64,000 nucleotides of DNA, from the NCBI RefSeq assembly GCF_003385115.1, contig NZ_QUNI01000017.1:1830-65829 (forward strand). Direction: 5' to 3'. Every line of letters begins with the position of its first letter. Positions within the stretch are counted from its first letter, which is position 1. This DNA comes from Flavobacterium aquicola (lineage in GTDB: Bacteria; Bacteroidota; Bacteroidia; Flavobacteriales; Flavobacteriaceae). A program made the position numbers and the translations under genes. Positions 1-14,270 of this stretch are shown here, piece after piece. Below the pieces are notes generated by a model. It was not told where the DNA came from, made no database searches, and saw nothing but the letters and a program-made list of their open reading frames with translations.

Positions 1-1
1 C

Positions 2-127
2 TAACAGCTACTACAACGGATTTGGGCAATAGGCTTAATGGAAAAATGGTTTTGTATTTGAATGATTTGGCAAATCCGAAGAATGAGCTTAATTTAGTCC
101 CAAACCCGCTGTAGTACCAGAACGTTA
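2..127 (+). repeat. attC-like site 1
   Basis: Left arm TAAC-AGC-TACTACAACGGATTTGGG, right arm CCCAAACCCGCTGTAGTA-CCAGAAC-GTTA. The arms pair with two A/C oppositions on the top strand, which become T/G wobbles on the bottom strand. The unequal spacers (AGC against CCAGAAC) form an asymmetric internal loop. It closes a unit lying outside the window. Confidence 0.8.
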
Positions 128-146
128 TGCACAATTTTAAAAAAAT

Positions 147-449
147 ATGGAACTAACAAACATACCTGAATTCAAGTGCAAAAAATGCTTGAAAAATTTT
201 GAAATCGAAATCGATGACTTTGAAACAGACACATATTCATACGAAAGAAGTATGGGGAACGAAAACCAATATAATTGGAACTATATTGGTAATTGCCCAC
301 ATTGCGACAATGATTTAGAAATTTCATTTGATGCATATGAATACCCTGTTGGAATGCTAAATTATGAAGATTCGGAGCTTACAGGATGTGAATTTATTAT
401 AAAACCAATATTTAATGTTCACAATGAAGACTTTGAAACAGATATTTAA
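147..449 (+). CDS. small zinc-ribbon protein, cassette 1
   Basis: A 100-residue protein with two CxxC knuckles, CKKC near residue 11 and CPHC near residue 50, so probably one four-cysteine zinc ribbon; the rest is acidic and has no family I recognise. It starts 23 bases after the GTTA end of site 1. Its end overlaps the next ORF by about 26-35 bases, so the two are probably translationally coupled. No signal peptide or membrane segment is visible. The partner looks like a phage abortive infection protein, so a role as regulator or partner is possible but only inferred. Confidence 0.6.
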   Translation: MELTNIPEFKCKKCLKNFEIEIDDFETDTYSYERSMGNENQYNWNYIGNCPHCDNDLEISFDAYEYPVGMLNYEDSELTGCEFIIKPIFNVHNEDFETDI

Positions 450-1212
450 TATTTATACATTGATTGTAGTAGTTGTATACTCCACTTTATTACATTTATA
501 CTTTAACCATTTTGACAGTTCGAAATTCTCAGATGACAACGGTAAATGGGGAACTTTCGGAGACTTCTTTGGCGGAACACTTAGCCCAATTATTGGTATT
601 TTTTCGATATACTTGACTTATAAAATCATCTATAAGCAAAGTGAAGAAAGTGATCAAAATGAATTTAAAAATATGTTTCAAATTTTATTTCAGTCTCTTC
701 CTGAAGAAAAAAAGGAAATCACAATTAACAAACTGACTGGAGATAAAGCAATTTTGAAACTGAATAATGACATTGAACTTTACTACACGATGGCTTCTGA
801 GGAAGACACAAATGTTCCAAAAAATTATCAGAAAAATATTGAAAATGCCTTTTGGAGTATTCACGGAGATGCTAAAGATTCGTTCGGTCCTTTCATGAAA
901 AACTTGCATAACATGCTTAAATTCATTGATTCATATTGTGCAGAAAATAGAAAAAAAGACTATGCAGATTTATTGAGAGCGCAGTTTAATACACATGAAT
1001 TGTTATTTATATTTTACAACTCTGTAGGTAGCACTAAACACATAGAATTTAAACGTCGCTTAAAAAAGTTTGATTTCTTAAAAGACATAAAGGATGACGA
1101 TGATATCGATTCAAATTTGAGAATTCTGTTTAATGAGAACTCTTCAAAAAAAACTAAAACCTTTTCATTCTGTAATTACCATATCACAATTACAGAAAAA
1201 AACTGTGCATAA
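415..1212 (+). CDS. putative phage abortive infection (AbiC-like) membrane protein, cassette 1
   Basis: About 265 residues; ATG at 415, with an alternative in-frame ATG at 424 that shortens the overlap with the upstream ORF. Two N-terminal membrane segments (about residues 9-28 and 48-72) bracket the motif WGTFGDFFGGTLSPI, which closely matches the usual start of the putative AbiC family (PF16872 as I recall it). A soluble, charged domain follows. The stop codon TAA (1210-1212) is itself the first three bases of site 2, so the gene fills the cassette to its last base. Family membership rests on the N-terminal motif and topology; phage defence in this strain is inferred. Confidence 0.6.
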   Translation: MFTMKTLKQIFNIYTLIVVVVYSTLLHLYFNHFDSSKFSDDNGKWGTFGDFFGGTLSPIIGIFSIYLTYKIIYKQSEESDQNEFKNMFQILFQSLPEEKKEITINKLTGDKAILKLNNDIELYYTMASEEDTNVPKNYQKNIENAFWSIHGDAKDSFGPFMKNLHNMLKFIDSYCAENRKKDYADLLRAQFNTHELLFIFYNSVGSTKHIEFKRRLKKFDFLKDIKDDDDIDSNLRILFNENSSKKTKTFSFCNYHITITEKNCA

Positions 1213-1337
1213 CAGCCGTTACACGAGATTTGGGCATTAGGCTGAATTTAAAAATGGTTTTGTACTTGGAAAATTTGTGTCTAACCGAAAAAACCTCGCG
1301 TCTTTCATCCCAAACCCGCTGTAGTACCAAGACGTTA
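1210..1337 (+). repeat. attC-like site 2 (mixed-arm variant)
   Basis: The left arm is of a second subtype (GTTACACGAGATTTGGG, shared with site 10), while the right arm CCCAAACCCGCTGTAGTA is of the common subtype. The middle also resembles site 10 (CTAACCGAAA). The start TGTGCATAAC (1204-1213) is complementary to GTTATGCACA at 124-133, the start of the same cassette. Confidence 0.75.
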
Positions 1338-1383
1338 TGCGACATTTAATCCAAAAACAACTATAAAATTAACAATTCAAAAA

Positions 1384-1902
1384 ATGTATACACCAGAAGA
1401 AGATTTATTAATTCAATCATATTTTACAATTGCTTTTCTTTCAGAACTTCAAAACAATAATTTTTTAAACAGTGAGGCATATAAAGAAATGCCATTTCAA
1501 GATTCTTTCATAAAAGAGCATCTACCCTCAATTGGGATAGGTAATCGAGGCGCATTAGTACAATCTCTTTATTCTATGCTTGTACTACCAAAAGAGTTGA
1601 TATCTGATAAATTTCCAGCAGAATTTTCAGCTTTAAATGATATTCTTGAATCTCTGCATTCACAAATCACTACAACTTATACTTCTGATAATCCAAAAGT
1701 TGATTTTGTTAGACATATTCGAAATTCAGTTGCTCACGGAAAAGTAAATTTTGAAAATGATCTAGTAGTATTCAATGATCAAAATAAAAGAACTGGAGAA
1801 ACCTGTGAAATTAAAATTACACTCACAAATTTTGGACAATTTATGAGTGAACTGCAAAAGATTTTCTTTGCGTTTGTAGAATCTATCAAAAATAAAAAAT
1901 AA
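1384..1902 (+). CDS. HEPN-family protein, cassette 2
   Basis: A 172-residue all-helical-looking protein. Near residues 110-118 it has VRHIRNSVAHGKV, containing RNSVAH, which fits the Rx4-6H catalytic signature of HEPN domains, often ribonucleases in toxin-antitoxin and defence systems. The arrangement resembles the pEK499_p136-like HEPN group, but I assign only HEPN with confidence. It is the only ORF of its cassette, with ATG 45 bases past the GTTA of site 2, and no antitoxin is visible beside it. RNase activity is inferred from the motif. Confidence 0.6.
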   Translation: MYTPEEDLLIQSYFTIAFLSELQNNNFLNSEAYKEMPFQDSFIKEHLPSIGIGNRGALVQSLYSMLVLPKELISDKFPAEFSALNDILESLHSQITTTYTSDNPKVDFVRHIRNSVAHGKVNFENDLVVFNDQNKRTGETCEIKITLTNFGQFMSELQKIFFAFVESIKNKK

Positions 1903-1910
1903 ACGTCGCA

Positions 1911-2037
1911 TAACAGCCACTACAACGGATTTGGGCATTTGGCTTAATGGAAAAATGGTTTTGTATTTGGGATGATTTGGCAAATCCGAAAATAGGGCTT
2001 AATTTAATCCCAAACCCGCTGTAGTGCCAGAACGTTA
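1911..2037 (+). repeat. attC-like site 3
   Basis: Common subtype with a C/G covariant pair (left AGCCACT, right AGTGCC). Preceding bases GTCGCATAAC are complementary to GTTATGCGAC at the start of the same cassette (1334-1343). Confidence 0.8.
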
Positions 2038-2050
2038 TGTGCAAGCTTAG

Positions 2051-2287
2051 ACAGACATTGATAGACGTGTTTTAGTTTATGATTTTTTTGAATTTAAAAA
2101 CAATTGGTATAACCTAACTAATCCAAAAGCAATCAGGCTAAAACAAATAACTTCAACAATATCAAATTTATCTATTAAAGCTGTAGGGATTTTAATATCG
2201 GTAGTTGTTGGACCGCTATTAGTTATTATACTGTGGGAAAAATATAAAATTGAACTTTTAAACATTTGGAATACATTTTTTAAATAA
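2051..2287 (+). pseudogene. truncated membrane-protein ORF without start codon, cassette 3
   Basis: An open frame of 78 codons, ending TAA at 2285-2287, has no ATG, GTG or TTG near its beginning; it opens right after a TAG at 2048-2050. It reads TDIDRRVLVYDFFEFKN and on through ISVVVGPLLVIILWEKY to WNTFFK, so it has one clear hydrophobic segment in the second half. It looks like the 3' part of a gene. The cassette's two ends do not match beyond GTTATG, unlike most other cassettes, which suits a deletion that fused the beginning of one cassette to the end of another. The opposite strand has a 62-residue frame (2077-2265) that I regard as a shadow. Confidence 0.45.
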
Positions 2288-2352
2288 TATTTCTGACTTC
2301 AAAGCGGTGCAGAAGCGAAACCGAAAAATTGAGTAAATAAAAAACCGAAGGC

Positions 2353-2479
2353 ATAACAGCCACTACAACGGATTTGGGCATTTGGCTTAATGGAATAATG
2401 GTCTTGTATTTGGATGATTTGGCAAATCCGAAGAATGGGCTTGATTTAATCCCAAACCCGCTGTAGTGCCAGAACGTTA
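2353..2479 (+). repeat. attC-like site 4
   Basis: Common subtype, C/G covariant pair. The bases before it (GAAGGCATAAC) fail to match the start of their own cassette (GTTATGTGCAAGC) beyond the first six, the clearest exception among units 1-15. Confidence 0.8.
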
Positions 2480-2923
2480 TGGGAGATTTTACAGCCAATT
2501 CGTGCCGAATTGACGCTTTCATTTTCAATAGAAATCAAAGCAGAAACGTAAAAAACAGAACGCAGACAGAACGCCAAATTTGAAAAATTGGAATCTGCCA
2601 AACTTACGCTGAAATTAGAAACGTGAAAATTGAAGCCGAATAACAAAAACGTGAAAAACCAATCTGCCAAACTTACGCCGAAAAGCAAAAGCGTGAAAAG
2701 CAGAAACGTGAAAATTGGGATCGATAAGCAGAAGCGTGAAAAACTAATCTATCAAACTTGACGTTCGAAACATAAAATCAATTTTCGCTTCAATTGGCCA
2801 CAATTGAATTTTATTAAACTGTACTGCCGAACTAAAACGGAAAAGCAAAAGACTGAAAAACGAAACTTAAAAGTTGGAATGGAAGTGCTAAAAATAAGAT
2901 CGTGCTAAAGAAAAAACCTCCCA
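2480..2923 (+). other. cassette 4 with no intact ORF (decayed or non-coding)
   Basis: This cassette is intact at its ends (GTTATGGGAG at 2476-2485 against CTCCCATAAC) but has no credible gene. The longest plus-strand frame from an ATG is about 34 codons from 2479. The sequence holds short near-repeats: AATCTGCCAAACTTACGC twice (about 2589 and 2659) and several AAACGTGAAAA/AAGCGTGAAAA units. Read in one frame these give AEKQKREKQKREN-like stretches broken by stops, suggesting a decayed gene for a charged, coiled-coil-like protein. A non-coding RNA cassette cannot be excluded. Confidence 0.4.
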
Positions 2924-3049
2924 TAACCGCTACTACAACGGATTTGGGCAATTCGCTTAATGGAAATATGGTTTTGTATTTGGATGATTTGGCAAATCCG
3001 AAGAATGGGCTTAATTTAGTCCCAAACTCGCTGTAGTACCAGAACGTTA
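2924..3049 (+). repeat. attC-like site 5
   Basis: Common subtype with left TAACCGC rather than TAACAGC and a T/A covariant pair. Its leading CTCCCATAAC is complementary to the start of cassette 4. Confidence 0.8.
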
Positions 3050-3088
3050 TCTGTCATTCTATAAAAAACAAGACGTAACAAAAATTAC

Positions 3089-3096
3089 TATCTTTG
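3089..3096 (+). promoter_or_regulatory. candidate -7 box (TATCTTTG) inside cassette 5
   Basis: TATCTTTG fits the Bacteroidota -7 consensus TAnnTTTG and lies 18 bases before the ATG at 3115. I see no good -33 TTTG at the usual distance. It suggests that the restriction enzyme gene has its own promoter within the cassette. Confidence 0.35.
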
Positions 3097-3114
3097 AAAA
3101 CCAATTTTAAAAAA

Positions 3115-3825
3115 ATGACAGAAGAAAAAAGAATTGAAATACTAAATAATGCTAAAGACTTTTTCAGAAGTGAAATTGTAACTAGCCATATTGAAGGAGC
3201 TTGTAAACGAGCAAGTAAATTATCTGAATATAATGTAAATCCTTTTTTATTCAAATATTTAGCAAATTTTCTAACTGGAAATGATAATGCTGAAAGCATA
3301 GCAAGAGCTTTAGTTTTACCGAGAATTCTAGGCTCATCAATTAACACATCATTCGGAATGAAAATCCAAAAACTAATAGGACAATTATTCCAAGGATTAG
3401 GTTCAACGACAACAGGAATTGATATTGAATTCATTGATGCTATAGATGGACGCAGAAAATATTGTCAACTAAAAGCCGGCCCAAATACAATTAATCACGA
3501 TGATGTAGTGACCGTTATTAATCACTTCAATGGTGTTAGAAATTTAGCAAGAACAAATAACTTAAATGTTGGAATAGATGATATGATAGTTGGAGTTATT
3601 TACGGTGAAGAAGCTGAATTAAGTTCACATTATAAGAAAATATCTAATTCATTTCCTGTAATAATAGGAAAAGAATTTTGGTATAGACTTACAGGGAAAG
3701 AGGATTTTTACTTTGACTTGATTGATGCAATTGGAGACGTAGCATTAGAAGTTGATGGAAGTCATATTGTAGAAGAAACCATTTCAAATCTAGCGTTAGA
3801 AATTCAAGCAAAATATTTTGAGTAA
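3115..3825 (+). CDS. PmeII-like type II restriction endonuclease, cassette 5
   Basis: From the ATG at 3115 the protein has 236 residues (a TTG at 3094 is in frame but sits in the likely -7 box). The N-terminal stretch KDFFRSEIVTSHIEGACKRASKLSEYNVNPFLFKYLANFL resembles the PmeII family of type II restriction enzymes. The region GIDIEF(x)13QLKAGPNT carries a D...QxK arrangement typical of PD-(D/E)xK nuclease cores. It converges on a C5 DNA methyltransferase gene only 9 bases away, the expected partner. Function is well supported by context; the recognition sequence cannot be told. Confidence 0.7.
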   Translation: MTEEKRIEILNNAKDFFRSEIVTSHIEGACKRASKLSEYNVNPFLFKYLANFLTGNDNAESIARALVLPRILGSSINTSFGMKIQKLIGQLFQGLGSTTTGIDIEFIDAIDGRRKYCQLKAGPNTINHDDVVTVINHFNGVRNLARTNNLNVGIDDMIVGVIYGEEAELSSHYKKISNSFPVIIGKEFWYRLTGKEDFYFDLIDAIGDVALEVDGSHIVEETISNLALEIQAKYFE

Positions 3826-3834
3826 AATAGAAAT

Positions 3835-5073
3835 CTATGATTTCTGTTTTACTTTATAATAATCATTTAAAAACTTGATAATCGAATAACCAACTTCACG
3901 ACCTAAATTTACAGGAACAGCATTTCCAATTTGTTTGTATTGTTGAGCCATTGGTCCTGAAAATTGCCAATCATCTGGAAAAGTTTGTATTCTAGCATAT
4001 TCACGCACTGTAAACGGACGAGTTTCGTCTGGGTGGCATCTTTCAGTTTGTTTTTGGGCTGGACTACAAGTTAAAGTTAAGCAGGGTTCATCCCACCCTA
4101 TTCTTCTTGCCATACCAGTTTTTCCACCACCTAAATAAAAACTTGCGCCCATAAAATCCTTCTGAATATCTATTGGTAAATCTCTCCAATATCCTTTAGG
4201 GGGAACTAGATCTAAAACACTTTTTTTACTTTCGGGATATTTTGCTCCACTAGACTTATGCACATTAGACTCAAACAGTTCTCCTTTTTTGAGTGCATCT
4301 GAAAGATTATATATTTTTTTATAAGGCTTTGGATATTCATATTTTAAATTAATATCTTTCCTAATTCCAACTAAAATAAGACGTTCTCTTTTTTGTGGAA
4401 CTTTATAATTTATAGCCTTTAAGACTTGTACAGGAACAACATTATAACCAATTTCATCCAAAATAGAAATCATACCTTGTAAAGTTTTTCCATTATCGTG
4501 GTTCAATAATCCTTTAACATTTTCTCCGATACAAATTGGCGGATTTACTTCTTTGATAACACGTGCAAATTCATAAAACAAAGTTCCTCGAGCATCTTCA
4601 AATCCTAATCTTTTACCAGCATAACTAAATGCTTGACAAGGAAATCCTCCAGTAACAACATCCACCTGATTGTAATATTCAGAAAAAATGAAATTCTTTA
4701 TATCTCCTTCCAGAACATTCCATTTTGGTCGATTATTTCTTAAAGTTGCACAAGCGTGTTTATCAATTTCATTCAAAGCAACACATTTCAATCCTGCTTT
4801 TTCCATTCCAACGGCCAAACCACCAGCACCAGCAAATAACTCCAAAACTTTGTATTCATTTTCAGACTCGACAAAATTGGAAATTGTTTCTCGGACATCT
4901 GTCTGAAGAAAATCAGCAAATAAAGTCTCAACATCATTTTTTCTATAAACTCTATAATTACTCATAGGTTCACGAACTGCAGAAAGTTTTCCTTCTTCAT
5001 CCCAACGACGAAGTGTTTTTGTGCTCTTATTAAGTAACTTTGCTGTTTCTGAAATAGTTAAATATTCACTCAT
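3835..5073 (-). CDS. DNA (cytosine-5) methyltransferase with N-terminal MerR-like DNA-binding domain, cassette 5
   Basis: About 412 residues from the ATG at 5073; an upstream in-frame ATG at 5091 would add six residues. Residues 1-50 form an excisionase/MerR-like winged helix (YLTISETAKLLNKSTKTLRRWDEEG). The catalytic part shows the C5 motifs in order: I, FAGAGGLAVGMEKAG; IV, GGFPCQAFSYAG with the catalytic Cys; VI, GENVKGLL; VIII, QKRERLILVGIR; X, GNAVPVNLGREVG. It protects host DNA against the convergent PmeII-like enzyme. The added N-terminal domain may autoregulate transcription, as seen in some other C5 methyltransferases. It is the only clear minus-strand cargo gene in the array. Confidence 0.9.
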   Translation of the reverse strand: MSEYLTISETAKLLNKSTKTLRRWDEEGKLSAVREPMSNYRVYRKNDVETLFADFLQTDVRETISNFVESENEYKVLELFAGAGGLAVGMEKAGLKCVALNEIDKHACATLRNNRPKWNVLEGDIKNFIFSEYYNQVDVVTGGFPCQAFSYAGKRLGFEDARGTLFYEFARVIKEVNPPICIGENVKGLLNHDNGKTLQGMISILDEIGYNVVPVQVLKAINYKVPQKRERLILVGIRKDINLKYEYPKPYKKIYNLSDALKKGELFESNVHKSSGAKYPESKKSVLDLVPPKGYWRDLPIDIQKDFMGASFYLGGGKTGMARRIGWDEPCLTLTCSPAQKQTERCHPDETRPFTVREYARIQTFPDDWQFSGPMAQQYKQIGNAVPVNLGREVGYSIIKFLNDYYKVKQKS

Positions 5074-5104
5074 AACCAAATTATACAACATTAGACATTG
5101 GTTA

Positions 5105-5137
5105 CAAATATAATGGAAAATATTTCAAACTTCCAAA
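5105..5137 (-). promoter_or_regulatory. candidate promoter of the methyltransferase gene
   Basis: On the minus strand TTTG (5134-5137) is followed after 21 bases by TATATTTG (5105-5112), a good match to the Bacteroidota -33 TTTG and -7 TAnnTTTG elements. It lies 31 bases before the chosen ATG, between the gene and site 6. Confidence 0.5.
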
Positions 5138-5167
5138 ACAAAAATGAGAAAAAAAAAGAACGACAGA

Positions 5168-5293
5168 TAACAGCCACTACAACGGATTTGGGCATTGGGA
5201 TTAATGGAAAGATGGTTTTGTATTTGGATGATTTGGCAAATCCGAAAATAGGGCTTAATTTAGTCCCAAACCCGCTGTAGTGCCAGAACGTTA
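5168..5293 (+). repeat. attC-like site 6
   Basis: Common subtype, C/G covariant pair. Leading GACAGATAAC is complementary to GTTATCTGTC at 3046-3055, over 2 kb away at the start of the same restriction-modification cassette. Confidence 0.8.
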
Positions 5294-5320
5294 CCAGCTA
5301 TATTAAAAAGAACCTGCGAA

Positions 5321-5770
5321 ATGATTGAGACATATCCAAATCCTTGGAACTTTGATTACACTGACAAAACATTTGTTTCTGCAAACAGTTTATATAAAAT
5401 TGTTTATTCCGAATTAAACGAAATAGCAATGGGTGCTCCACTTGTCGGAAAATGTTTTATTGAAATGACTGACAATCTGAAAATAAAAATCCACGATTCG
5501 TGTGGCGGACCGCCAGCTTGGGAAACAAGTGGACAATTATTAGCTATTCCAATATGGACTAGAAAATTTTGGAAAGGAACTGTTCAACAAATTGGCATAG
5601 TCAATTTAAAAACAAAAGAGCTAAAAATATATTCAAAAACTTTCAATGTACTTGATTTTCGCTCTTTTGACAAAACATTTATTTATGGTTACGACAGTCC
5701 AATACACAAAAGGAAAACTTTAGTTTTTGATATTGAAAAAGAAAAAATAGAAACAATAATAAAATTGTAG
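5321..5770 (+). CDS. hypothetical protein, cassette 6
   Basis: 149 residues, no signal peptide or membrane segment, no family recognised. Aromatic-rich start (YPNPWNFDYTDKTF), then HDSCGGPPAWETSGQ and mixed strand-like segments; probably a small soluble beta-rich protein. It is the only ORF in its cassette, whose ends match as GTTACCAGCT and AGCTGGTAAC. Confidence 0.6.
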   Translation: MIETYPNPWNFDYTDKTFVSANSLYKIVYSELNEIAMGAPLVGKCFIEMTDNLKIKIHDSCGGPPAWETSGQLLAIPIWTRKFWKGTVQQIGIVNLKTKELKIYSKTFNVLDFRSFDKTFIYGYDSPIHKRKTLVFDIEKEKIETIIKL

Positions 5771-5783
5771 AAAATACAGCTGG

Positions 5784-5909
5784 TAACAGCTACTACAACG
5801 GATTTGGGCAATAGGCTTAATGGAAAAATGGTTTTGTATTTGAATGATTTGGCAAATCCGAAGAATGAGCTTAATTTAGTCCCAAACCCGCTGTAGTACC
5901 AGAACGTTA
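5784..5909 (+). repeat. attC-like site 7
   Basis: Common subtype, T/A covariant pair; nearly identical to site 1. Leading AGCTGGTAAC complements the start of cassette 6. Confidence 0.8.
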
Positions 5910-5945
5910 TGCACAATGCCACCAAAACTAACTAAATACAAATTA

Positions 5946-6419
5946 ATGAGATATTTTCTAATACTTCTATTTTTAATGACTTCCTGTAAAGAATCTTCTA
6001 ATTCAAAATTTGAGAATATAAAATCTTTACCCAACAGAGATTATGAAGTTGCTCTAAAATTTATAAACGATTATAACAAAGATTTTTTTAGTCCACATTC
6101 AGAGAGTTTAGAATGGCTTTCGAAAAATAAAACTATCACACAAAACTTATTGCAACGATACAAACAAATGTTAGATTCTGCGAAAATCGCTGACCCAGAA
6201 TTAGGGTTGGATTTTGACCCAATTATTAACGGGCAGGATTCTGATGAACAAGGTTTTGAAATAAAGAAAATAGATTCTATACTTGGCTATGTAACAGTAA
6301 GCGGAAAATCTGCTCCCAATTTTGAAATAGTATTAAAAGTAATAGAAAAAAATGGTGTTACTTTAGTTGATGGTTCAGGAGTAATCAATATTCCAAAATC
6401 TAAACGGCCTAAATATTAA
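5946..6419 (+). CDS. small lipoprotein of unknown function, cassette 7
   Basis: From the ATG at 5946 the protein has 157 residues and begins MRYFLILLFLMTSCKESS, a lipoprotein signal with the lipidated Cys near residue 14; the in-frame ATG at 5916 would put ten polar residues before it and lies almost in the site, so I prefer 5946. The mature part has charged helices (residues about 35-80) and a C-terminal strand-rich part. No known domain recognised. Probably on the outer surface of the inner membrane or in the outer membrane. Confidence 0.65.
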   Translation: MRYFLILLFLMTSCKESSNSKFENIKSLPNRDYEVALKFINDYNKDFFSPHSESLEWLSKNKTITQNLLQRYKQMLDSAKIADPELGLDFDPIINGQDSDEQGFEIKKIDSILGYVTVSGKSAPNFEIVLKVIEKNGVTLVDGSGVINIPKSKRPKY

Positions 6420-6430
6420 AGCACTGTGCA

Positions 6431-6556
6431 TAACAGCTACTACAACGGATTTGGGCAATTGGTTTAATGGAAAGATGGTTTTGTATTTGAATGATTTGGC
6501 AAATCCGAAGAATGGGCTTAATTTAGTCCCAAACCCGCTGTAGTACCAGAACGTTA
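6431..6556 (+). repeat. attC-like site 8
   Basis: Common subtype, T/A covariant pair. Leading TGTGCATAAC complements GTTATGCACA at the start of cassette 7 (5906-5915). Confidence 0.8.
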
Positions 6557-6592
6557 TAAGCAAGCTTCAAACCAATTGCATCTAAATCACAA

Positions 6593-6943
6593 ATGGAAAC
6601 AAATAACGAATATGCAATTTTAGAAAGAATTCTGTCTGAAATAATAGCATTTTATTTCAGCAAAGAATCTATAGAAAGTTATGTTGGTTATGAAACCAGA
6701 GAACGGATAGGAACTGTAAACGGAATGCAAGTAATCATTTATTCCAACGACCACAATCCACCACACTTTCACGTTAAAACAAACGATAATCGCGTAAATG
6801 CAAAATTCAAAATTGAAAATGGTGAGTTTTTAAGCGGAGAAATAAGTACAAAAGACTTAAAACGAATTGAATTGTTTTATAACGATATTAAAACAAAAAT
6901 TTTGATGGAAAAAATTTGGTCTAAAAAGAATATTCAGAAATAA
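6593..6943 (+). CDS. DUF4160-family protein, cassette 8
   Basis: 116 residues with the motif VIIYSNDHNPPHFHVK (about residues 44-59), the hallmark of DUF4160, followed by a short helical end (IELFYNDIKTKILMEKIWS). DUF4160 genes often stand beside a DUF2442 gene in an arrangement reminiscent of toxin-antitoxin pairs; here a different small ORF follows after 10 bases, so the two are likely one operon and one cassette unit. Biochemical function of the family is not known to me. Confidence 0.75.
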   Translation: METNNEYAILERILSEIIAFYFSKESIESYVGYETRERIGTVNGMQVIIYSNDHNPPHFHVKTNDNRVNAKFKIENGEFLSGEISTKDLKRIELFYNDIKTKILMEKIWSKKNIQK

Positions 6944-6953
6944 AAAGAAAAAA

Positions 6954-7199
6954 ATGTACGCAGATTTTGAATATGGAATGAAAGTTTCATTAGATGGAGA
7001 ATTCGGAATTATAATTAAATCCGAATTAGACAAACCAAATTTTTACGGTAGGATTTGTTGGGATACCGACAAAGAATTAGATTTTGAAGATTGGCATGGA
7101 TTGTTTGGTTCTTTTATAAATCAAGGCGGAGAAATAGTTTCAGAAAATTATCATTTTAGATTTATAAACGATGATGGAAGTAAAAAAGCCTGCTTATAA
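6954..7199 (+). CDS. small acidic protein, DUF4160 partner, cassette 8
   Basis: 81 residues, acidic, no signal; DFEYGMKVSLDGEFGIIIKSE and GRICWDTDKELDFEDWHGLFGSFI suggest a small SH3-like or beta-barrel fold. It follows the DUF4160 gene by ten bases and takes the place normally held by DUF2442, so it may be its partner or antitoxin (inference). Its stop TAA (7197-7199) is the first three bases of site 9, so the gene runs to the very edge of the recombination-site repeat. Confidence 0.6.
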   Translation: MYADFEYGMKVSLDGEFGIIIKSELDKPNFYGRICWDTDKELDFEDWHGLFGSFINQGGEIVSENYHFRFINDDGSKKACL

Positions 7200-7322
7200 C
7201 AGCTACTACAACGGATTTGGGCAATTGGCTTAATGGAATGATGGTTTTGTATTTGGATAATTTGGCAAATCCGAAGAATGGGCTTAATTTAGTCCCAAAC
7301 CCGCTGTAGTGCCAGAACGTTG
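7197..7322 (+). repeat. attC-like site 9
   Basis: Common subtype; the covariant position is broken (left T, right G). Ends GTTG instead of GTTA because the next cassette begins TTGTGC. Leading TGCTTATAAC complements GTTATAAGCA of its own cassette. Confidence 0.8.
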
Positions 7323-7356
7323 TGCATCACTTTCGAGCGACAGAGAACCTAAATAA

Positions 7357-8076
7357 ATGAAAAAAATAACAACAATAATATTATTAATATTCTCATTTAA
7401 TTTTTGCATCGCACAAAATGCAAAAATTAGAATCCAATATCATACGGAAAAAAGTATAAAATCTGAAACTTTTGATAGTTTAGTATTTATTGTTAATGGA
7501 GAAAAACTGAATTTAATAAATCTTGAAATTAAAAATATAAAGTTAAATCAAAATGGATTTGATAAATTAAGTTACTACTACAAGGGAAAAGAAAATATTG
7601 TAGTAACAGAAATGAGTTGCAAATTTAAACCAAATCATTCATATAAAATTATGCCGTGTTTGTGTTGTGAAGATTTTATGATAGTTGCAGATAGCGTGCC
7701 TAAAAGAGGAAGTGTAAGATTTATTAATAATACTAATAGAAAATTAATAGGTATAAGATCTGAATTCAATTTAGATACAATTAACAAAAAATCTAAAACA
7801 AAGTATCTACCATCAGATATTTCAATGAATTGTGGTTTTAGACCGTTTTTTATAGAAATTACAGAATTTAAATACGCAAACCCAAAATTTGATTATAATG
7901 AGGATAATACAGAAGAACAAAATCAAATATTAAATAAAGAACAGGATTCACTTTGGATAGCGAAAGAACCATTTCTTTTTTTACACGGAGAAAAAATAAC
8001 AGCAATTTATGATGATAAAAAACGTAAAATCATCTTGAAATTTGACGGATATTTAACTGATTTAGAATACAAATAA
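7357..8076 (+). CDS. secreted protein of unknown function, cassette 9
   Basis: 239 residues with a Sec signal (MKKITTIILLIFSFNFCIAQ) cut after about residue 20. The mature part has a Cys-rich stretch, MPCLCCEDFMIV, near residue 108 that may bind metal or form disulfides, then two strand-rich segments. No family recognised. It is alone in its cassette; the cassette ends match over seven bases (GTTGTGC and GCACAAC). Confidence 0.6.
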   Translation: MKKITTIILLIFSFNFCIAQNAKIRIQYHTEKSIKSETFDSLVFIVNGEKLNLINLEIKNIKLNQNGFDKLSYYYKGKENIVVTEMSCKFKPNHSYKIMPCLCCEDFMIVADSVPKRGSVRFINNTNRKLIGIRSEFNLDTINKKSKTKYLPSDISMNCGFRPFFIEITEFKYANPKFDYNEDNTEEQNQILNKEQDSLWIAKEPFLFLHGEKITAIYDDKKRKIILKFDGYLTDLEYK

Positions 8077-8090
8077 AAAAAGCGAACGCA

Positions 8091-8218
8091 CAACAGAAGT
8101 TACATGAGATTTGGGTTTCGGTCATTAACTGAAAGTTGGTTTTGTGTTTTAAAGTTCAGGCTTTAACCGAAAGTTTAGGCTTGCTTTTTCCCAAACCTCG
8201 TGTAGCTGCGAAACGTTG
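8091..8218 (+). repeat. attC-like site 10 (second subtype)
   Basis: Divergent version: left arm CAACAGAAGTTACATGAGATTTGGG, right arm CCCAAACCTCGTGTAGCTGCGAAACGTTG. The loop sequence differs from the common subtype, but arm layout and total length (128 bp) are kept, which argues that structure rather than sequence is conserved. Confidence 0.75.
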
Positions 8219-8245
8219 GCAGTAATTGTAAAAAAACGAATTCTA

Positions 8246-8776
8246 ATGAAATTAACACTTGTAAATAAACCATTTCTCATCGTTTTTGTCTTGTCAATTT
8301 TATTACATTCTTGTCAGAAAGAAGAAAAACAAAAGAAAATTAAAGAATCTGAAGTTCATTCTTGTGCAAAAGAATTACAACCACCGCCACCAATAGAAAA
8401 TAGAATTTTATCATCAGCGAAACTCGAAATAAATGAGGAAAAGAGAAAATATTTTGTTACTGTAAATTTAGTTGCTGATAAATTAGTAGATTTTAACGGA
8501 AAAGACCAACAGCTTTATAAAATTGAAACAACAAACAAAAATAGGACAAGAAAACTTTATTTCGCTCTTCCAATAGATTACAATAAATATTGGAATGAAT
8601 TAAAAATATTCTCTGATAAAGAAAATAAGATTTTAGAAATTGGTTTTAAAGAAAAGGAAGTTTCAAAAACATTATATAAACTTTACGGATATAAATATGA
8701 CAATGAAGATTTCGGAAATGGTCTTATTGAGATAAAATCAAATTTTGAAAAGAATCAATATAGAATAATCGACTAG
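8246..8776 (+). CDS. small lipoprotein of unknown function, cassette 10
   Basis: 176 residues from the ATG at 8246, beginning MKLTLVNKPFLIVFVLSILLHSCQKEE, a lipoprotein signal with the lipidated Cys near residue 23. The open frame extends back to 8216 but that start overlaps the site. The mature part is rich in Lys and Glu, with HSCAKELQPPPPIENRIL near residue 40. No known domain recognised. Cassette ends match over ten bases (GTTGGCAGTA, TACTGCCAAC). Confidence 0.65.
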   Translation: MKLTLVNKPFLIVFVLSILLHSCQKEEKQKKIKESEVHSCAKELQPPPPIENRILSSAKLEINEEKRKYFVTVNLVADKLVDFNGKDQQLYKIETTNKNRTRKLYFALPIDYNKYWNELKIFSDKENKILEIGFKEKEVSKTLYKLYGYKYDNEDFGNGLIEIKSNFEKNQYRIID

Positions 8777-8792
8777 CCAAAACAACTACTGC

Positions 8793-8919
8793 CAACAGCC
8801 ACTACAACGGATTTGGGCAATTGGCTTAATGGAAAGATGGTTTTGTATTTGGCATAATTTGGCAAATCCGAAGAATGGGCTTAATTTAGTCCCAAACCCG
8901 CTGTAGTACCAAGACGTTG
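8793..8919 (+). repeat. attC-like site 11
   Basis: Common subtype with the covariant pair broken (left C, right A, a G/T wobble on the bottom strand). Leading TACTGCCAAC complements the start of cassette 10. Confidence 0.8.
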
Positions 8920-8930
8920 GCAGACATATT

Positions 8931-9629
8931 ATGAAGAAACTACAAAAAACAACATTCATCTTCTTAGTTATTCTTTTTGCAAATTGTAAAAAGAGCGATT
9001 GTGATATTGAATTTAACAAACATGTTTTAACGGAAATTTTGCCAAGCATAATAGACTCAACTTGTGTCGATATAAGAATATTTTCAAATCCACCTCCACC
9101 ATATGGAAAAATGCTTTTTGATAAAGAAGGGAGATTTACGAAAATTGATTCAACAAAAGCAACAGCTAAAGAAATTCAAAGATTAAAAGATTGGAAAAAA
9201 GATATTGCTGAAATAAAAAAAGATACGTCTAAAGTTATCATAGCTTTTGATCCCAAAATTTCTCCATACGAAAAAGAATATGAATTGATTGTTATTAAAG
9301 ATTTTCCAAATGATACTTTGAAAAAACTGATAGCTAATAAAACAAAAGAATACCTTCTAAATTACAAAAGTATAAGATTGAATGGTAAATTCATGCTAAA
9401 AGATATAAACGAATTTGATAGAGAAAATATTTTTGAGAGAAAATATAAATTTAATTTTTCAGGAATATTAAGGGTTTCGGGAATTAAATTTGATAAAAAA
9501 TGTGAAAGCGGAATTCTTGATGTTGGATTTACTTGTGGAAGACTATGTGGTTATGGAAATAAAATCTTTATCAAAAAGGTAAAGAATAAATGGAAAATAA
9601 TTAAAATGGAAGGAACTTGGATGTCATAG
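8931..9629 (+). CDS. lipoprotein of unknown function, cassette 11
   Basis: 232 residues, starting MKKLQKTTFIFLVILFANCKKSDC, a lipoprotein signal with Cys at residue 19. A proline run (IFSNPPPPYGKM) follows near residue 50, and the C-terminal part has paired cysteines in FTCGRLCGYGNK and strands ending KWKIIKMEGTWMS. No function can be assigned. The ATG lies 12 bases past the end of site 11, so little room remains for a promoter of its own. Confidence 0.65.
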   Translation: MKKLQKTTFIFLVILFANCKKSDCDIEFNKHVLTEILPSIIDSTCVDIRIFSNPPPPYGKMLFDKEGRFTKIDSTKATAKEIQRLKDWKKDIAEIKKDTSKVIIAFDPKISPYEKEYELIVIKDFPNDTLKKLIANKTKEYLLNYKSIRLNGKFMLKDINEFDRENIFERKYKFNFSGILRVSGIKFDKKCESGILDVGFTCGRLCGYGNKIFIKKVKNKWKIIKMEGTWMS

Positions 9630-9641
9630 AAATACGCCTGC

Positions 9642-9767
9642 CAACAGCTACTACAACGGATTTGGGCAATAGGCTTAATGGAAAGATGGTTTTGTATTTG
9701 GATAATTTGGCAAATCCGAAGAATGGGCTTAATTTAGTCCCAAACCTCGTGTAGCGCCAGGACGTTG
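9642..9767 (+). repeat. attC-like site 12 (mixed-arm variant)
   Basis: The left arm is the common subtype (TACTACAACGGATTTGGG), the right arm is of the site 10 subtype (CCCAAACCTCGTGTAG). It is the mirror case of site 2. Confidence 0.8.
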
Positions 9768-9796
9768 TATGCAAGTTCTGAAAAACCGAATCTAAA

Positions 9797-10288
9797 ATGA
9801 AATTAAAATATCTAATCTTTTGTTTTTCTTCAATCTGTTTTTCTCAAAACAAACATTTGGGTATATATAATGATGCCTCCGGAAATAAAATTGAACTATT
9901 TGAAAATAATAAATTCAGACATACTTGGCAATTTGATTTATCAGCAAGTTGGACTACTGGAAAGTGGTCAATATCGAACGACACTTTAAAGCTTGAAGCT
10001 GTAAAAGTCTATGATACTTTAAATGTCTTTGACAAGAAAAACAATAGATATAAAGATAGTTTAGTTTTAGCAGAAGACGAGATTCCTAAACGAATAAACG
10101 AAACTCAAAATGCAATCAAATCATTATCTTCTGGTGGACAAAACAGAGTTTTACCTAATACCCTTTTTTTTCTTAAAAAGAATAAATTAATTATTATCAA
10201 AGCTGATGGAAAATTGCAAACAGAAAAAATAAAAGGATTTTTTGGCAATAAAACATATAATACTTGGTACCGAAAACGAGACGAATAA
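9797..10288 (+). CDS. small secreted protein, lipocalin-like pattern, cassette 12
   Basis: 163 residues with a short Sec signal (MKLKYLIFCFSSICFSQ). The mature start HLGIYNDASGNKIELFENNKFRHTWQFD...WTTGKWSISNDTLKLE resembles small lipocalin-like or META-like stress proteins of Bacteroidota, with several short strands, but the similarity is weak and I give no firm family. Cassette ends match as GTTGTATGCA and TGCATACAAC. Confidence 0.6.
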   Translation: MKLKYLIFCFSSICFSQNKHLGIYNDASGNKIELFENNKFRHTWQFDLSASWTTGKWSISNDTLKLEAVKVYDTLNVFDKKNNRYKDSLVLAEDEIPKRINETQNAIKSLSSGGQNRVLPNTLFFLKKNKLIIIKADGKLQTEKIKGFFGNKTYNTWYRKRDE

Positions 10289-10297
10289 ACCTGCATA

Positions 10298-10423
10298 CAA
10301 CAGCCACTACAACGGATTTGGGCAATTGGCTTAATAGAAAAATGGTCTTGTATTTGGGATATTTGGCAAATCCGAAGAATGGGCTTAATTTAGTCCCAAA
10401 CCCGCTGTAGTGCCAGAACGTTA
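10298..10423 (+). repeat. attC-like site 13
   Basis: Common subtype, C/G covariant pair. Leading TGCATACAAC complements the start of cassette 12. Confidence 0.8.
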
Positions 10424-10465
10424 CCGGTAATTTTAACACATACAGCTTAAAACAGAATCAATAAA

Positions 10466-10930
10466 ATGAAAAACTTAATAATCATTATTTTACTGTTTAA
10501 TAGCTTGTGTTCATTTGGACAAAACCACCTTGCAAAATCTAAATTGTTAAAATCAAAACATATCAAAATTGATAGTATAGAAGTTCAAGTTTCCATTTAC
10601 GAATACGGCGAAATTGTGACTGAAAGTTATTTTGAAAAAAGCAAAAGCAAATTAAGTGTTGCTTATTTAAAATTTGCAAAGTCATCTTATAAAATTTCGA
10701 CACGGGAAAATAGTTTAATGCCTGAAGATTTTTGGCGCACAAATGAATTTGACTTTGAAAATGGAAAAGTTTTAAACGGAAAAGAAAGATTTCACTTTAG
10801 TGGAAAAATGAGTGGAATCTTTGGGAAAACTGATAAAGAATACAGAGAAAGCTTTAATAAATCTTTAAATTCTGAATTCGTTGAAAAGTATGTGGTTGAG
10901 TTGTTTGAGAAAATAAAAAACTACCGGTAA
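10466..10930 (+). CDS. small secreted protein of unknown function, cassette 13
   Basis: 154 residues with a Sec signal (MKNLIIIILLFNSLCSFGQ). The mature protein is basic and strand-rich, then helical at the end (YRESFNKSLNSEFVEKYVVELFEKIKN). No family recognised. The stop TAA (10928-10930) is shared with the first three bases of site 14. Confidence 0.6.
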   Translation: MKNLIIIILLFNSLCSFGQNHLAKSKLLKSKHIKIDSIEVQVSIYEYGEIVTESYFEKSKSKLSVAYLKFAKSSYKISTRENSLMPEDFWRTNEFDFENGKVLNGKERFHFSGKMSGIFGKTDKEYRESFNKSLNSEFVEKYVVELFEKIKNYR

Positions 10931-11053
10931 CAGCCATTGCAACGGATTTGGGCAATTGGCTTAATGGAAAGATGGTTTTGTATTTGAATGATTTGGCAAA
11001 TTCGAAGAATGGACTTAATTTAGTCCCAAACCCGCTGTAGTGCCAGAACGTTA
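10928..11053 (+). repeat. attC-like site 14
   Basis: Common subtype with one altered base in the left arm (CATTGCAACGG). Leading TACCGGTAAC complements GTTACCGGTA of cassette 13. Confidence 0.8.
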
Positions 11054-11110
11054 TGGGCTATGTTAGCAGAAAACAGAAGAGACATTATTTAAAAACCAGA
11101 AAATCCATAA

Positions 11111-11848
11111 ATGAAAATATATTCAGCAATACAAATCGGAGATTATCATCAAAATAATTGTGAAGACCATTTGTATATTGGAGAATATGGAAAAAATAAA
11201 ATTCTTTGCGCAGTAATGGATGGTTGCACAACTGCATTGGAAAGTCATTTCGCTTCAACTCTAGTTGGAAAAATTCTAAAGAAAATTTGCATTGAAAAAG
11301 GTTATATAGAATTTGTTGAACAAAATGATTTGCAACTCAATGTTGAAGAAAACTTAAAAACAATTCTCCGAGATTTATTAAATGAGCTCAAAATTGTGAA
11401 AAACCAATTAATGCTTGACTCAAAAGAATTATTGACAACCTTAATAATATTGTTGTTTGACAAGAATAATGAACAAGGAATAATATTAGCAATTGGAGAC
11501 GGATTTGTTAATCTTAATGGCGAAATAACTGAATTTGAACAAGACAATAAACCCGATTATTTAGGTTTTCATTTATCCGAGGATTTTGAGACATTTTATA
11601 ATTCTCAAAAACAGAAAATTGAATTTAATAAAATAACAGACTTAAGTATTTCAACTGACGGAATATTTGCTTTTGAGAAATTAGCACCGAGTAAATCTAA
11701 AGAAGAAATTAATGTAATTGAGTTTTTAACAACCGAAAAAACTAATTCTGAAAAAGATGAAATGCTTAATCTAAAACTAAAGATATTAGAAAATGAATTT
11801 GGATTGAAACCGACTGATGATTTTTCTATAATTAGAATAACGGAGTAA
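11111..11848 (+). CDS. PP2C-family protein phosphatase, cassette 14
   Basis: 245 residues. PP2C (PPM) metal-site motifs appear in order: NCEDHLY near residue 17, AVMDGCTT near residue 34, LTTLIILL near residue 107, AIGDGFV near residue 125, STDGI near residue 179 and TDDFSIIRI at the C-terminus. It therefore probably dephosphorylates Ser/Thr residues in a Mn/Mg-dependent way. No kinase partner lies in the cassette. Signalling or defence roles are open. Confidence 0.8.
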   Translation: MKIYSAIQIGDYHQNNCEDHLYIGEYGKNKILCAVMDGCTTALESHFASTLVGKILKKICIEKGYIEFVEQNDLQLNVEENLKTILRDLLNELKIVKNQLMLDSKELLTTLIILLFDKNNEQGIILAIGDGFVNLNGEITEFEQDNKPDYLGFHLSEDFETFYNSQKQKIEFNKITDLSISTDGIFAFEKLAPSKSKEEINVIEFLTTEKTNSEKDEMLNLKLKILENEFGLKPTDDFSIIRITE

Positions 11849-11861
11849 AAAACACAGCCCA

Positions 11862-12014
11862 TAACAGCTACTACAACGGATTTGGGCAATAGGCATAATG
11901 GAAAGATGTTTTTGTATTTGGATGATTTACTTCGTCTGTTCGCTATCGCTCGAGTGGCAAATCCGTAGAATGGGCTTAATTTAGTCCCAAACCCGATGTA
12001 GTGCCAGAACGTTG
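11862..12014 (+). repeat. attC-like site 15 (long 153-bp variant)
   Basis: Carries an extra stretch of about 27 bases (CTTCGTCTGTTCGCTATCGC...) between GATTT and GGCAAATC in the loop, lengthening an internal hairpin. Site 16 and the relic at 16.15 kb share it, so the long form clusters at this end of the array. Confidence 0.8.
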
Positions 12015-12047
12015 TGTGCTATTTTCGAGCAACTGAAACTAAAAAAA

Positions 12048-13163: not shown

Positions 13164-13175
13164 TAAAACAGCACA

Positions 13176-13328
13176 CAAGAGCTACTACAACGGATTTAGG
13201 CAATTGACTTAATGGAAAGATGGTTTTGTATTTGGATGATTTGCTTCGCCTGTTCGCTATCGCTCGGGTGGCAAATCCGAAGAATGGGCTTAATTTAGTT
13301 TCGAATTCACTTTATTACCAGAACGTTA
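13176..13328 (+). repeat. attC-like site 16 (long variant, partly decayed)
   Basis: Begins CAAGAGC rather than TAACAGC, and its right arm is altered (TTCGAATTCACTTTATTACC). Leading AGCACACAAG still complements GTTGTGTGCT of cassette 15 at nine of ten positions. Confidence 0.75.
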
Positions 13329-13369
13329 GCGTTCATTGCAAAAGAGACATCTATAAACAAAGAATTAAA

Positions 13370-13894
13370 ATGGCATATTTAGTAATTGCATATCCAGAGT
13401 TAGAAAAAAACGATTTTGACAAAATACAACAGTACCGAGAACTAAATGATAAGTTGTTTTTCAAAGTAATTGCTCCACATTTTACAATTGTTTTTCCAGT
13501 TTTTGATAAGGAAGAAACTGAATTTATTGAGGAAGTGAAATTACAAGCGGCAAACATTGAAAGATTTAGTTTTAAAATTAAGTGTTCGACAATAAATAAA
13601 GATAGTTTTAGTGACCACTATCATTCATTTTTAGTTCCTGACGAAGGATTTAGCAGTATTGTTAAACTTCACGACAAACTTTATTGCGATAAACTCAAAG
13701 ATAATTTGAGGCTTGATATAGATTTTATTCCTCATATTGGTATAGGCAATTCTTTGGACAAATATTTATGCAAATCTATGGTTGACGAATGGAATAAAAC
13801 AGATTTTTTAATTGCAGGAGCTGTTACCAAGTTGACAATTGTCAAATATGAGAATGATGAGATAACGGAAATTGCAAGTATTAATCTTAAATAA
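13370..13894 (+). CDS. 2H-family phosphoesterase (2'-5' RNA ligase/LigT-like), last cassette
   Basis: 174 residues from the ATG at 13370; the longer frame from 13220 begins inside site 16 and is rejected. The two 2H motifs are visible as PHFTIVFP near residue 39 (HxT) and PHIGIG near residue 122 (HxG, where HxT/S is usual), giving the bilobal 2H layout. Such enzymes open 2',3'-cyclic phosphates of RNA or related nucleotides. The second-motif substitution makes activity uncertain. Downstream, the sequence CGAAACGCTGCTTAGCGTC looks like a decayed end of the cassette (its start is GTTAGCGTTC). Confidence 0.7.
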   Translation: MAYLVIAYPELEKNDFDKIQQYRELNDKLFFKVIAPHFTIVFPVFDKEETEFIEEVKLQAANIERFSFKIKCSTINKDSFSDHYHSFLVPDEGFSSIVKLHDKLYCDKLKDNLRLDIDFIPHIGIGNSLDKYLCKSMVDEWNKTDFLIAGAVTKLTIVKYENDEITEIASINLK

Positions 13895-14018
13895 TAAACA
13901 ACGAAACGCTGCTTAGCGTCAGTTTATGATAGAACGTAATAGAAAAAAATTAAATTACCACTACATAGAAAATTAATGATGAGACTAAAAATAAAACAGT
14001 TAATTAAAAACATAATTT

Positions 14019-14270
14019 ATGATAAATATTTTTAGCGGAAGTTATATTGAAGTAATGAATATCAAAAACCTATTGGAAAGCATAAATATTGAAGTATTTA
14101 CTCAAAACGAAAATATGGCTAATATTGAACCTTGGGCAGTAAGTTCCGGCGGATTTAATCCAGTAATTCTAAAAGTTAATGATGAAGATTTTGATAAAGC
14201 AAAAAAAATAATTGAGGATTACGAAAACGGAAATCTAAATATTGAAGTTGAGGAAACTGAAAAGGAATAA
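14019..14270 (+). CDS. DUF2007-like putative signal-transducing protein
   Basis: 83 residues: FSGSYIEVMNIKNLLESINIEVFTQNENM...AVSSGGFNPVILKVNDEDFDKAKKIIEDYE. This fits the DUF2007 (PF09413) small alpha/beta fold, which resembles a PII/ACT-like regulator; no ligand is known to me. No recognisable site separates it from the array, but the region on both sides has scraps that may be decayed sites, so it could be an old cassette gene. Confidence 0.65.
   Translation: MINIFSGSYIEVMNIKNLLESINIEVFTQNENMANIEPWAVSSGGFNPVILKVNDEDFDKAKKIIEDYENGNLNIEVEETEKE

What the first reader, a model, noticed from the sequence alone, without database searches (positions are those of the whole stretch)
147..1902. Neighbouring cassettes with putative defence genes (AbiC-like, HEPN)
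Cassette 1 carries an AbiC-like protein translationally coupled to a zinc-ribbon protein, cassette 2 a HEPN protein, cassette 5 an R-M pair. Together with the PP2C and 2H phosphoesterase units this suggests that the array is a store of phage-defence modules. The coupled zinc-ribbon plus AbiC-like gene might be a two-part defence unit.
Basis: inference. Interest (0 to 1): 0.7.

Follow-up and report, generated by a model that had tools for sequence, protein, structure and literature searches.

The report
Integron-like cassettes carrying a defence-gene pair
A Flavobacterium-type bacterium stores small genes in a long cassette array, and one cassette holds two overlapping genes, a likely zinc-binding protein and a membrane protein of a putative phage-defence family, that are found together in a few other bacteria and look like a two-part defence unit.

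Summary
Observation confirmed. Cassette 1 (124-1213) encodes a zinc-ribbon protein (147-449) overlapping a putAbiC membrane protein (424-1212; Pfam PF16872, 54.3 bits, cut-off 22). Cassette 2 (1334-1914) encodes a pEK499_p136 HEPN protein. Cassette 5 holds an EcoO109I-type nuclease and a C5 methylase; the PP2C and 2H genes are real too. Interpretation partly supported. In Chryseobacterium tagetis the pair is the whole content of a 1.3-kb insert at the guaA 3' end. About 8 of 106 cassettes carry clear defence domains, but raw PADLOC counts do not exceed a control set. 'Integrons as defence stores' is already published for Vibrio and mobile integrons. New here, as far as searched: the two-gene module, and a Flavobacterium cassette system whose head integrase, seen in relatives, lacks the stretch expected for the IntI-specific domain; this genome's assembly shows no such integrase. 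Sequence alone shows no function.

The parts
3..126 (+). attC-like recombination site upstream of cassette 1 (124 nt)
   Evidence: profile match 133.5 bits (the profile was built from window sites); hairpin with covariation over 237 distinct sites
124..1213 (+). cassette 1; ends GTTATGCACA / TGTGCATAAC are reverse complements over 10 nt
147..449 (+). zinc-ribbon protein, 100 aa; Cys 11, 14, 50, 53 (and Cys 81) invariant in 5 homologues
   Evidence: predicted fold mean pLDDT 84.7
424..1212 (+). AbiC-like membrane protein, 262 aa (putAbiC); GTFGDF..GG motif between two hydrophobic helices; another ATG lies at 415
1211..1336 (+). attC-like site between cassettes 1 and 2
   Evidence: 98.1 bits
1334..1914 (+). 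cassette 2; ends complementary over 10 nt
1384..1902 (+). HEPN protein, pEK499_p136 family, with RNSVAH (R-x4-H)
1912..2036 (+). attC-like site after cassette 2
   Evidence: 129.6 bits
3046..5171 (+). cassette 5 with a type II R-M pair
3115..3825 (+). EcoO109I-family restriction endonuclease
   Evidence: PF14511 E 8e-34
3835..5091 (-). C5 cytosine methyltransferase with a MerR-like N-terminus, convergent to the nuclease gene
   Evidence: PF00145 E 1e-84, PF00376 E 4.5e-9
11111..11848 (+). PP2C-type phosphatase cassette gene
   Evidence: PF13672 E 4.1e-13
13370..13894 (+). 2H phosphoesterase / 2'-5' RNA ligase-like gene after the last strong site
   Evidence: PF13563 E 2.7e-12

Best explanation
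Cassette 1 carries a self-contained two-gene module: a small, probably cytosolic zinc-ribbon protein translated in overlap with a membrane protein of the putAbiC family. Most likely it is an abortive-infection type anti-phage unit in which the zinc ribbon senses or restrains, and the membrane protein with its helical cytosolic part is the effector (membrane damage or growth arrest). It sits in one of about a hundred cassettes found in this genome's integron-like arrays, of which under a tenth are recognisable defence genes. Shown here: the families, the fixed pairing in this clade, the overlap, dN below dS in both genes, that the pair occurs as a unit in two different mobile settings, and the cassette structure. 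Inferred: anti-phage function, the division of labour, the membrane mechanism.
For: putAbiC and AbiP matches. Zinc ribbon directly upstream in the window, L056/L071 (Flavobacterium sp. MC2016-06), L070 (Flavobacteriales MAG BRH_c54), L072 (Chryseobacterium tagetis) and L073 (Flavobacteriia MAG), 40-47% identical to the window protein; no zinc-ribbon match at E<1e-3 at 50 other putAbiC loci, 48 of which have at least 400 nt upstream. Tree of 54 putAbiC rows: the zinc-ribbon label needs one change, branch support 100/100, 0 of 500 shuffles as low; the bootstrap had not settled. Overlap 23-32 nt in 4 of 5, 2-nt gap in L071. dN below dS in all ten pairs for both genes, dS partly saturated. L072: the pair alone between direct repeats of 60 and 59 nt of the guaA 3' end, each holding GAGTGGGA, the published integration core of GIsul2 (PMC9376610, passages). 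L070 neighbours: second putAbiC, DUF3800, HEPN_AbiV; L073 neighbours: a reverse transcriptase domain and DUF6119. putAbiC relatives in 12 viral contigs. In this genome the only putAbiC, the only pEK499_p136, the only Abi_2 and one of three TIR_2 genes lie within array spans that make up 1.68% of the genome; these families were picked because they had been seen in the array.
Against: No activity is known for this clade. Neighbours in L071 (IrrE-like peptidase, DuOB) and L072 (guaA and others, my reading) are not clearly defence genes. PADLOC at E<=1e-5 matches about 8 of 105 cassette ORFs against about 9 of 79 control ORFs, so counts alone give no enrichment; control proteins are longer (median 278 against 172 aa). 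Zinc-ribbon relatives at 35-38% identity sit on a cyanobacterial and a Paenibacillus plasmid with no putAbiC profile match within 3 kb, so the zinc ribbon is not tied to AbiC everywhere. The AbiC-like model is only moderately confident (pLDDT 76.8), and neither model matched a solved structure. Homologues are few: one other genome (G399) of 248 sampled relatives in the genus at E 5.7e-54, the other 12 matching genomes at E 1.8e-10 or weaker.
Confidence: 0.5

Rival explanations
1. The pair is a toxin-antitoxin unit that stabilises the DNA carrying it, with the zinc ribbon as antitoxin and the membrane protein as toxin, and no phage role in nature.
For: Small upstream gene overlapping a membrane protein gene; toxin-antitoxin families (ParE, YoeB) occur in arrays of relatives; integron toxin-antitoxin cassettes are known (recalled).
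Against: putAbiC is not a known toxin family (recalled); in one locus the pair sits beside other Abi-type genes (L070). A toxin-antitoxin unit can itself be anti-phage, so this rival overlaps with the main reading.
Confidence: 0.2
2. The pair has an ordinary non-immune role, for example envelope or metal stress sensing, and 'putative phage abortive infection' is a family label without meaning here.
For: The Pfam label says putative; no paper in the held library names the family and no solved relative was found.
Against: Sporadic distribution (in the family sample only this genome itself of 299 at E<=1e-10; 14 of 249 of the genus at E<=1e-5, this genome included), presence of the wider family in viral contigs, defence-like neighbours in L070 and perhaps L073.
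Confidence: 0.25
3. The array is a neutral store of accessory genes; the defence genes in it merely reflect the mobile gene pool, with no special link to defence. (Not exclusive with the main reading of cassette 1.)
For: At most 22 of 105 cassette ORFs have a Pfam match; by a rough rule 62 of 105 cassette ORFs look exported or membrane-anchored at the N-terminus against 43 of 79 controls; PADLOC counts not above control; relatives' arrays carry varied enzymes and toxin-antitoxin genes.
Against: 9 of the at most 22 Pfam-assigned ORFs belong to dedicated defence families by my reading; published tests found 16 of 179 V. cholerae cassettes protective (PMC12409362, passages).
Confidence: 0.4

Closest known systems
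putAbiC family, Pfam PF16872 (putative phage abortive infection protein)
   Same: Domain over the curated cut-off; GTFGDF..GG motif; N-terminal hydrophobic helices and a helical rest.
   Different: This clade has an upstream zinc-ribbon partner in 5 of 5 loci; 50 other putAbiC loci looked at here show none.
Anti-phage cassettes of Vibrio chromosomal integrons and of mobile integrons (Darracq 2025, Getz 2025, Kieffer 2025; seen only through passages of PMC12409362 and PMC12444791)
   Same: Small one- or two-gene defence cassettes, including reduced R-M systems, among many cassettes of unknown function.
   Different: Here in Flavobacterium, with an untested set of genes and no integrase found in this assembly.
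Integrons (IntI + attI + attC)
   Same: Tandem same-strand cassettes; sites ending in AAC...GTT with complementary cassette ends; a hairpin with covariation that folds better on the bottom strand; in relatives a tyrosine recombinase at the head.
   Different: The relatives' integrase lacks the stretch where the IntI-specific domain is expected, has an N-terminal extension, scores under the NCBIfam IntI cut-off, and reads in the same direction as the cassettes.
HEPN pEK499_p136 family, PF18736
   Same: Over the curated cut-off; R-x4-H motif present.
   Different: The only listed ORF of its cassette, with no partner gene.

Membership tests
putAbiC (PF16872) | Pfam domain over gathering score | tested here: met
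   54.3 bits against 22
putAbiC (PF16872) | abortive infection activity against phage | not testable with these tools
   needs a phage challenge
AbiP (PADLOC model) | profile match | tested here: inconclusive
   E 1.3e-7, 29.9 bits, profile positions 3-194 of 223; no curated cut-off in that library
Zinc ribbon | two CxxC knuckles conserved | tested here: met
   C11, C14, C50, C53 invariant in 5 of 5
Zinc ribbon | match to a known zinc-ribbon family or solved structure | tested here: inconclusive
   no Pfam cut-off reached; no Foldseek match at E<=0.001 and no Z of 5 or more among 996 re-aligned chains
HEPN pEK499_p136 (PF18736) | Pfam domain over gathering score and R-x4-6-H motif (motif recalled) | tested here: met
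   38.4 bits against 26.6; RNSVAH
HEPN pEK499_p136 (PF18736) | RNase activity | not testable with these tools
   needs purified protein
Type II restriction-modification | nuclease and methylase side by side | tested here: met
   PF14511 and PF00145 in one cassette; a shared target sequence was not tested
Integron | attC sites: AAC...GTT ends, foldable imperfect inverted repeat, cassettes as units (consensus recalled) | tested here: met
Integron | IntI with the IntI-specific additional domain (PMC9668308, passage) | tested here: not met
   this genome: no match to the relatives' integrase at E<=1e-60; no match over the TIGR02249 cut-off in 249 genomes; the relatives' head integrase has 16 residues where 2a3v (IntI4) has 58; that this gap is the additional domain is inferred
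Integron | attI site and Pc promoter | not tested
   no attI or head-promoter comparison was made
CALIN (attC cluster lacking an integron integrase) | attC cluster without a recognisable intI | tested here: met
   122 sites in 18 stretches of this genome, no integrase found in a fragmented assembly

The most novel reading that the evidence does not exclude
The zinc-ribbon + putAbiC pair is a new two-component membrane defence system, and it is shuffled as a cassette by a Flavobacterium gene-capture system that works like an integron although its head integrase lacks the domain held to define IntI, using sites whose cassette ends pair over 10 bases instead of the canonical seven (canonical length recalled).
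Probability: 0.35. Interest if true: 0.78.

Novelty: new variant of a known kind. Interest (0 to 1): 0.52.

Why it matters
It gives a ready two-gene candidate for a phage test, with its boundary set by nature (one cassette here, one 1.3-kb insert in Chryseobacterium). It extends the recent idea that cassette arrays stock anti-phage genes to Flavobacterium, and the arrays there offer a test of whether an integrase without the IntI-specific domain can move attC-like cassettes.

Tried and rejected
Literature: searches for integrons in Flavobacterium or Bacteroidota, for putAbiC / PF16872 / AbiC-like (0 papers) and for a zinc-ribbon abortive infection pair listed no paper whose title or abstract start is on these arrays or this pair; the listed papers were not opened, except those cited. 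PMC8618304 and PMC9668308 (passages) name Bacteroidota among phyla with integrons, so integrons in the phylum are not new. Subscription papers are not held, so 'not in print' is not claimed.

Led nowhere: zinc ribbon in viral contigs, 43 pattern stretches, none a relative. AbiC-like protein in 50,697 phage records, no match; in plasmids, 3 weak matches. HEPN relatives among the fetched loci: only copies of the window locus. Structure searches for both models: no useful match. A PDB profile search with the zinc ribbon gave glutamate-receptor rows from E 0.025 and one other protein, taken as chance. Rfam: no match in window 1-17000. Promoter scan of 1-2100: 12 sites against 10.0 expected. Exported or lipoproteins as the main theme: not distinct from control. 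Enrichment by PADLOC counts: not shown. The 124 control ORFs from relatives' stretches were set aside but never scanned. The DpnII-MboI-type ORF counted was not located. 'About 8' and 'about 9' PADLOC-positive ORFs are read from family tallies, assuming that models of one kind hit one ORF.

Rows dropped: rows with E above 1e-10 (L065, L067, a second piece of L145) and duplicates of the window locus and of L056/L071; the 10 of 106 cassettes whose ends are not GTT...AAC or hold N; in A5 the 6 shortest of 154 relatives' cassette ORFs. Of the 50 zinc-ribbon-negative loci, L077 and L060 have under 400 nt upstream. The L071 line of the overlap print used a mistyped end; the 2-nt gap is, start and stop codons seen.

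Full report
What is there. The window is G000:C17:1830-65829 of a 5.12-Mb assembly in 47 contigs. Its genus is Flavobacterium, by inference: G399, given as the same genus, holds the locus L056, whose tested 1.6-kb core is identical to L071, Flavobacterium sp. MC2016-06 contig034. Window bases 1-13.3 kb are a tandem array of same-strand cassettes separated by sites of about 124 nt. In the fetched stretches of this genome there are 122 such sites of at least 40 bits over 18 stretches, spanning 86 kb or 1.68% of the genome.

The cassettes are units. In 79 of 96 usable cassettes (of 106) the first bases (GTTNNNNNNN) are the reverse complement of the last bases (NNNNNNNAAC) of the same cassette over at least 9 nt. 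Between the end of one cassette and the start of the next, across an integrated site, this holds in 4 of 79; with shuffled ends the mean is 2.2 of 96 and the maximum 9. In the 63 cassettes that match over 10 nt, position 11 is always A on the left against G in the reversed right end, and position 12 matches in all 63. One site folded as DNA gives z -2.50 on the bottom strand and -0.32 on the top strand. Over 237 distinct sites from this genome and relatives the stem shows many changes on both sides, for example pairs 19-110 (150 C-G, 60 G-C) and 12-117 (151 A-T, 71 G-C) (structure from 60 of them, counts over all, relatedness not corrected). These are marks of integron attC sites.

Cassette 1. 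The zinc-ribbon ORF (147-449) and the AbiC-like ORF (424-1212, alternative ATG 415) overlap. The second protein matches putAbiC (E 2e-14, over the cut-off) and PADLOC's AbiP (E 1.3e-7). A scan of the named species genomes with a profile of it found 29 loci. The four with 43-51% identity over most of the protein (L070, L071, L072, L073) all have the zinc ribbon directly upstream; the 25 others (21-37%, and 50-52% over short pieces in L084 and L097) do not. With the same-genus loci L057-L069 and the viral loci L135-L146 this makes 0 of 50 with a zinc-ribbon match at E<1e-3, 48 of them with at least 400 nt upstream. In a tree of 54 rows the five zinc-ribbon rows are one group with support 100/100, though the bootstrap had not settled. 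The ORFs overlap by 23-32 nt in four loci and are 2 nt apart in L071. For every pair of the five, dN is below dS for both genes, with dS partly saturated. Cys 11, 14, 50, 53 and 81 are invariant. The rule holds one way only: two distant zinc-ribbon relatives, on plasmids of Synechococcus sp. NIES-970 and Paenibacillus polymyxa, have no putAbiC profile match within 3 kb.

The pair occurs as a unit in different settings. Here it is one cassette. In L056/L071 a degraded site (37.6 bits) follows it, which suggests a former cassette; no upstream site was found. In Chryseobacterium tagetis (L072) it lies alone between the 3' end of guaA (my reading of the translation) and the next gene, flanked by direct repeats of 60 nt (4438-4497) and 59 nt (5739-5797) that hold the last guaA codons. 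Both hold GAGTGGGA, reported as the integration core of island GIsul2 at the guaA 3' end (PMC9376610, passages). L070 puts it near a second putAbiC gene, DUF3800 and HEPN_AbiV; L073 near a reverse transcriptase domain and DUF6119; of the two L071 neighbours scanned, one is an IrrE-like peptidase and one a DuOB protein.

Cassette 2 and the rest. The HEPN protein is over the PF18736 cut-off and keeps RNSVAH; another member of the family occurs in relatives' arrays (1 of 148 ORFs, E 1.4e-41). Cassette 5 is an EcoO109I-type nuclease with a convergent C5 methylase. Elsewhere in this genome's cassettes: Abi_2/AbiD (L017), SLATT_5 (L009), GmrSD_N with an overlapping 198-aa partner (L012), TIR_2 (L014), a DpnII-MboI nuclease (not located), and less clearly PIN_12 (L010) and T5orf172 (L016). 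That is 9 ORFs of 105, in about 8 of 106 cassettes, of clear defence type.

Is the array enriched? Genome-wide, putAbiC 1 of 1, pEK499_p136 1 of 1, Abi_2 1 of 1 and TIR_2 1 of 3 copies lie within array spans, but these families were chosen because the array had shown them. The unbiased count does not favour enrichment: with PADLOC at E<=1e-5 about 8 of 105 cassette ORFs match and about 9 of 79 control ORFs, the controls being longer. The control matches are MotB-type ZorB models, mads_3, mads_8, AriA, an oxidoreductase and four candidate models; the cassette matches are mostly dedicated families; that contrast is a judgement. In relatives, 148 of 154 cassette ORFs were scanned and the first 25 of 76 Pfam and of 41 PADLOC families were shown: toxin-antitoxin genes, helix-turn-helix proteins, some candidates (PDC-M11A, PD-Lambda-2_B, SoFic) and many ordinary enzymes. 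Published screens found 16 of 179 V. cholerae cassettes and 9 of 57 tested V. parahaemolyticus cassettes protective (PMC12409362, passages), while DefenseFinder flagged 1.8% of cassette orthologues in Xanthomonas (PMC12444791, passages). So the idea is known, and the share here is of a similar order to Vibrio, by annotation only.

Who moves the cassettes? 127 of 249 sampled genomes of the genus, this one included, carry the site at E<=0.001. In the family sample it is 6 of 299: this genome, one of the same genus, and four short pieces. In relatives a tyrosine recombinase of about 347 aa stands at the head of the array (L102, L110, L115); 122 of 249 genomes have a match at E<=1e-60. Whether site and integrase go together across genomes was not counted. 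In 20 further integrase loci, taken from the best-ranked, a site of at least 20 bits lies within 3 kb downstream of the integrase 3' end in 10 of 20 (at least 40 bits: 8 of 20), in one more at 3.4 kb, always in the orientation of the integrase and never upstream; in 4 of 20 there are 4-6 kb downstream without a site, and in 16 of 20 the contig ends within 6 kb downstream. The integrase scores under the IntI cut-off (0 of 249 genomes over it). Against 2a3v (IntI4) it has 16 residues where that has 58, which I take to be the place of the IntI-specific additional domain, and two Xer-type chains score better. This genome gives no match at E<=1e-60, only weaker Xer-like ones, so its arrays are clusters of sites without a known integrase, or the assembly lost it.

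Verdict. Functions remain to be tested.

Noticed in passing
L102 18435-19478 (-), L110 3044-4087 (+), L115 14683-15810 (-): Head integrase of the Flavobacterium arrays in relatives: Xer-like core, N-terminal extension, no stretch where the IntI-specific insert is expected, reading in the same direction as the cassettes.
   Followed up: partly
window 1-13327 and array contigs: Cassette ends pair over 10 bases with a fixed A/G mismatch at position 11 and a match at position 12 (63 of 63), longer than the canonical seven (recalled).
   Followed up: partly
L019, L020, L021, L022, L023, L024: Small groups of 2-6 sites, several with ends that no longer pair, at six places away from the main arrays in the same genome.
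   Followed up: no
L072 4438-5797: 1.3-kb insert at the guaA 3' end of Chryseobacterium tagetis with only the zinc-ribbon + AbiC-like pair between direct repeats; no integrase inside.
   Followed up: partly
L012 1501-3145 and L010 6965-8291: Two further cassettes with two overlapping ORFs: GmrSD_N with a 198-aa partner, and PIN_12 with a 217-aa partner without Pfam match.
   Followed up: no
window 2476-2927: Cassette 4 has no ATG-started ORF of 40 aa or more inside it but internal direct repeats of 36-63 nt, as if a gene had decayed.
   Followed up: no
L008 1733-1834: Run of N in the assembly just before the window, at the site or cassette upstream of cassette 1.
   Followed up: no
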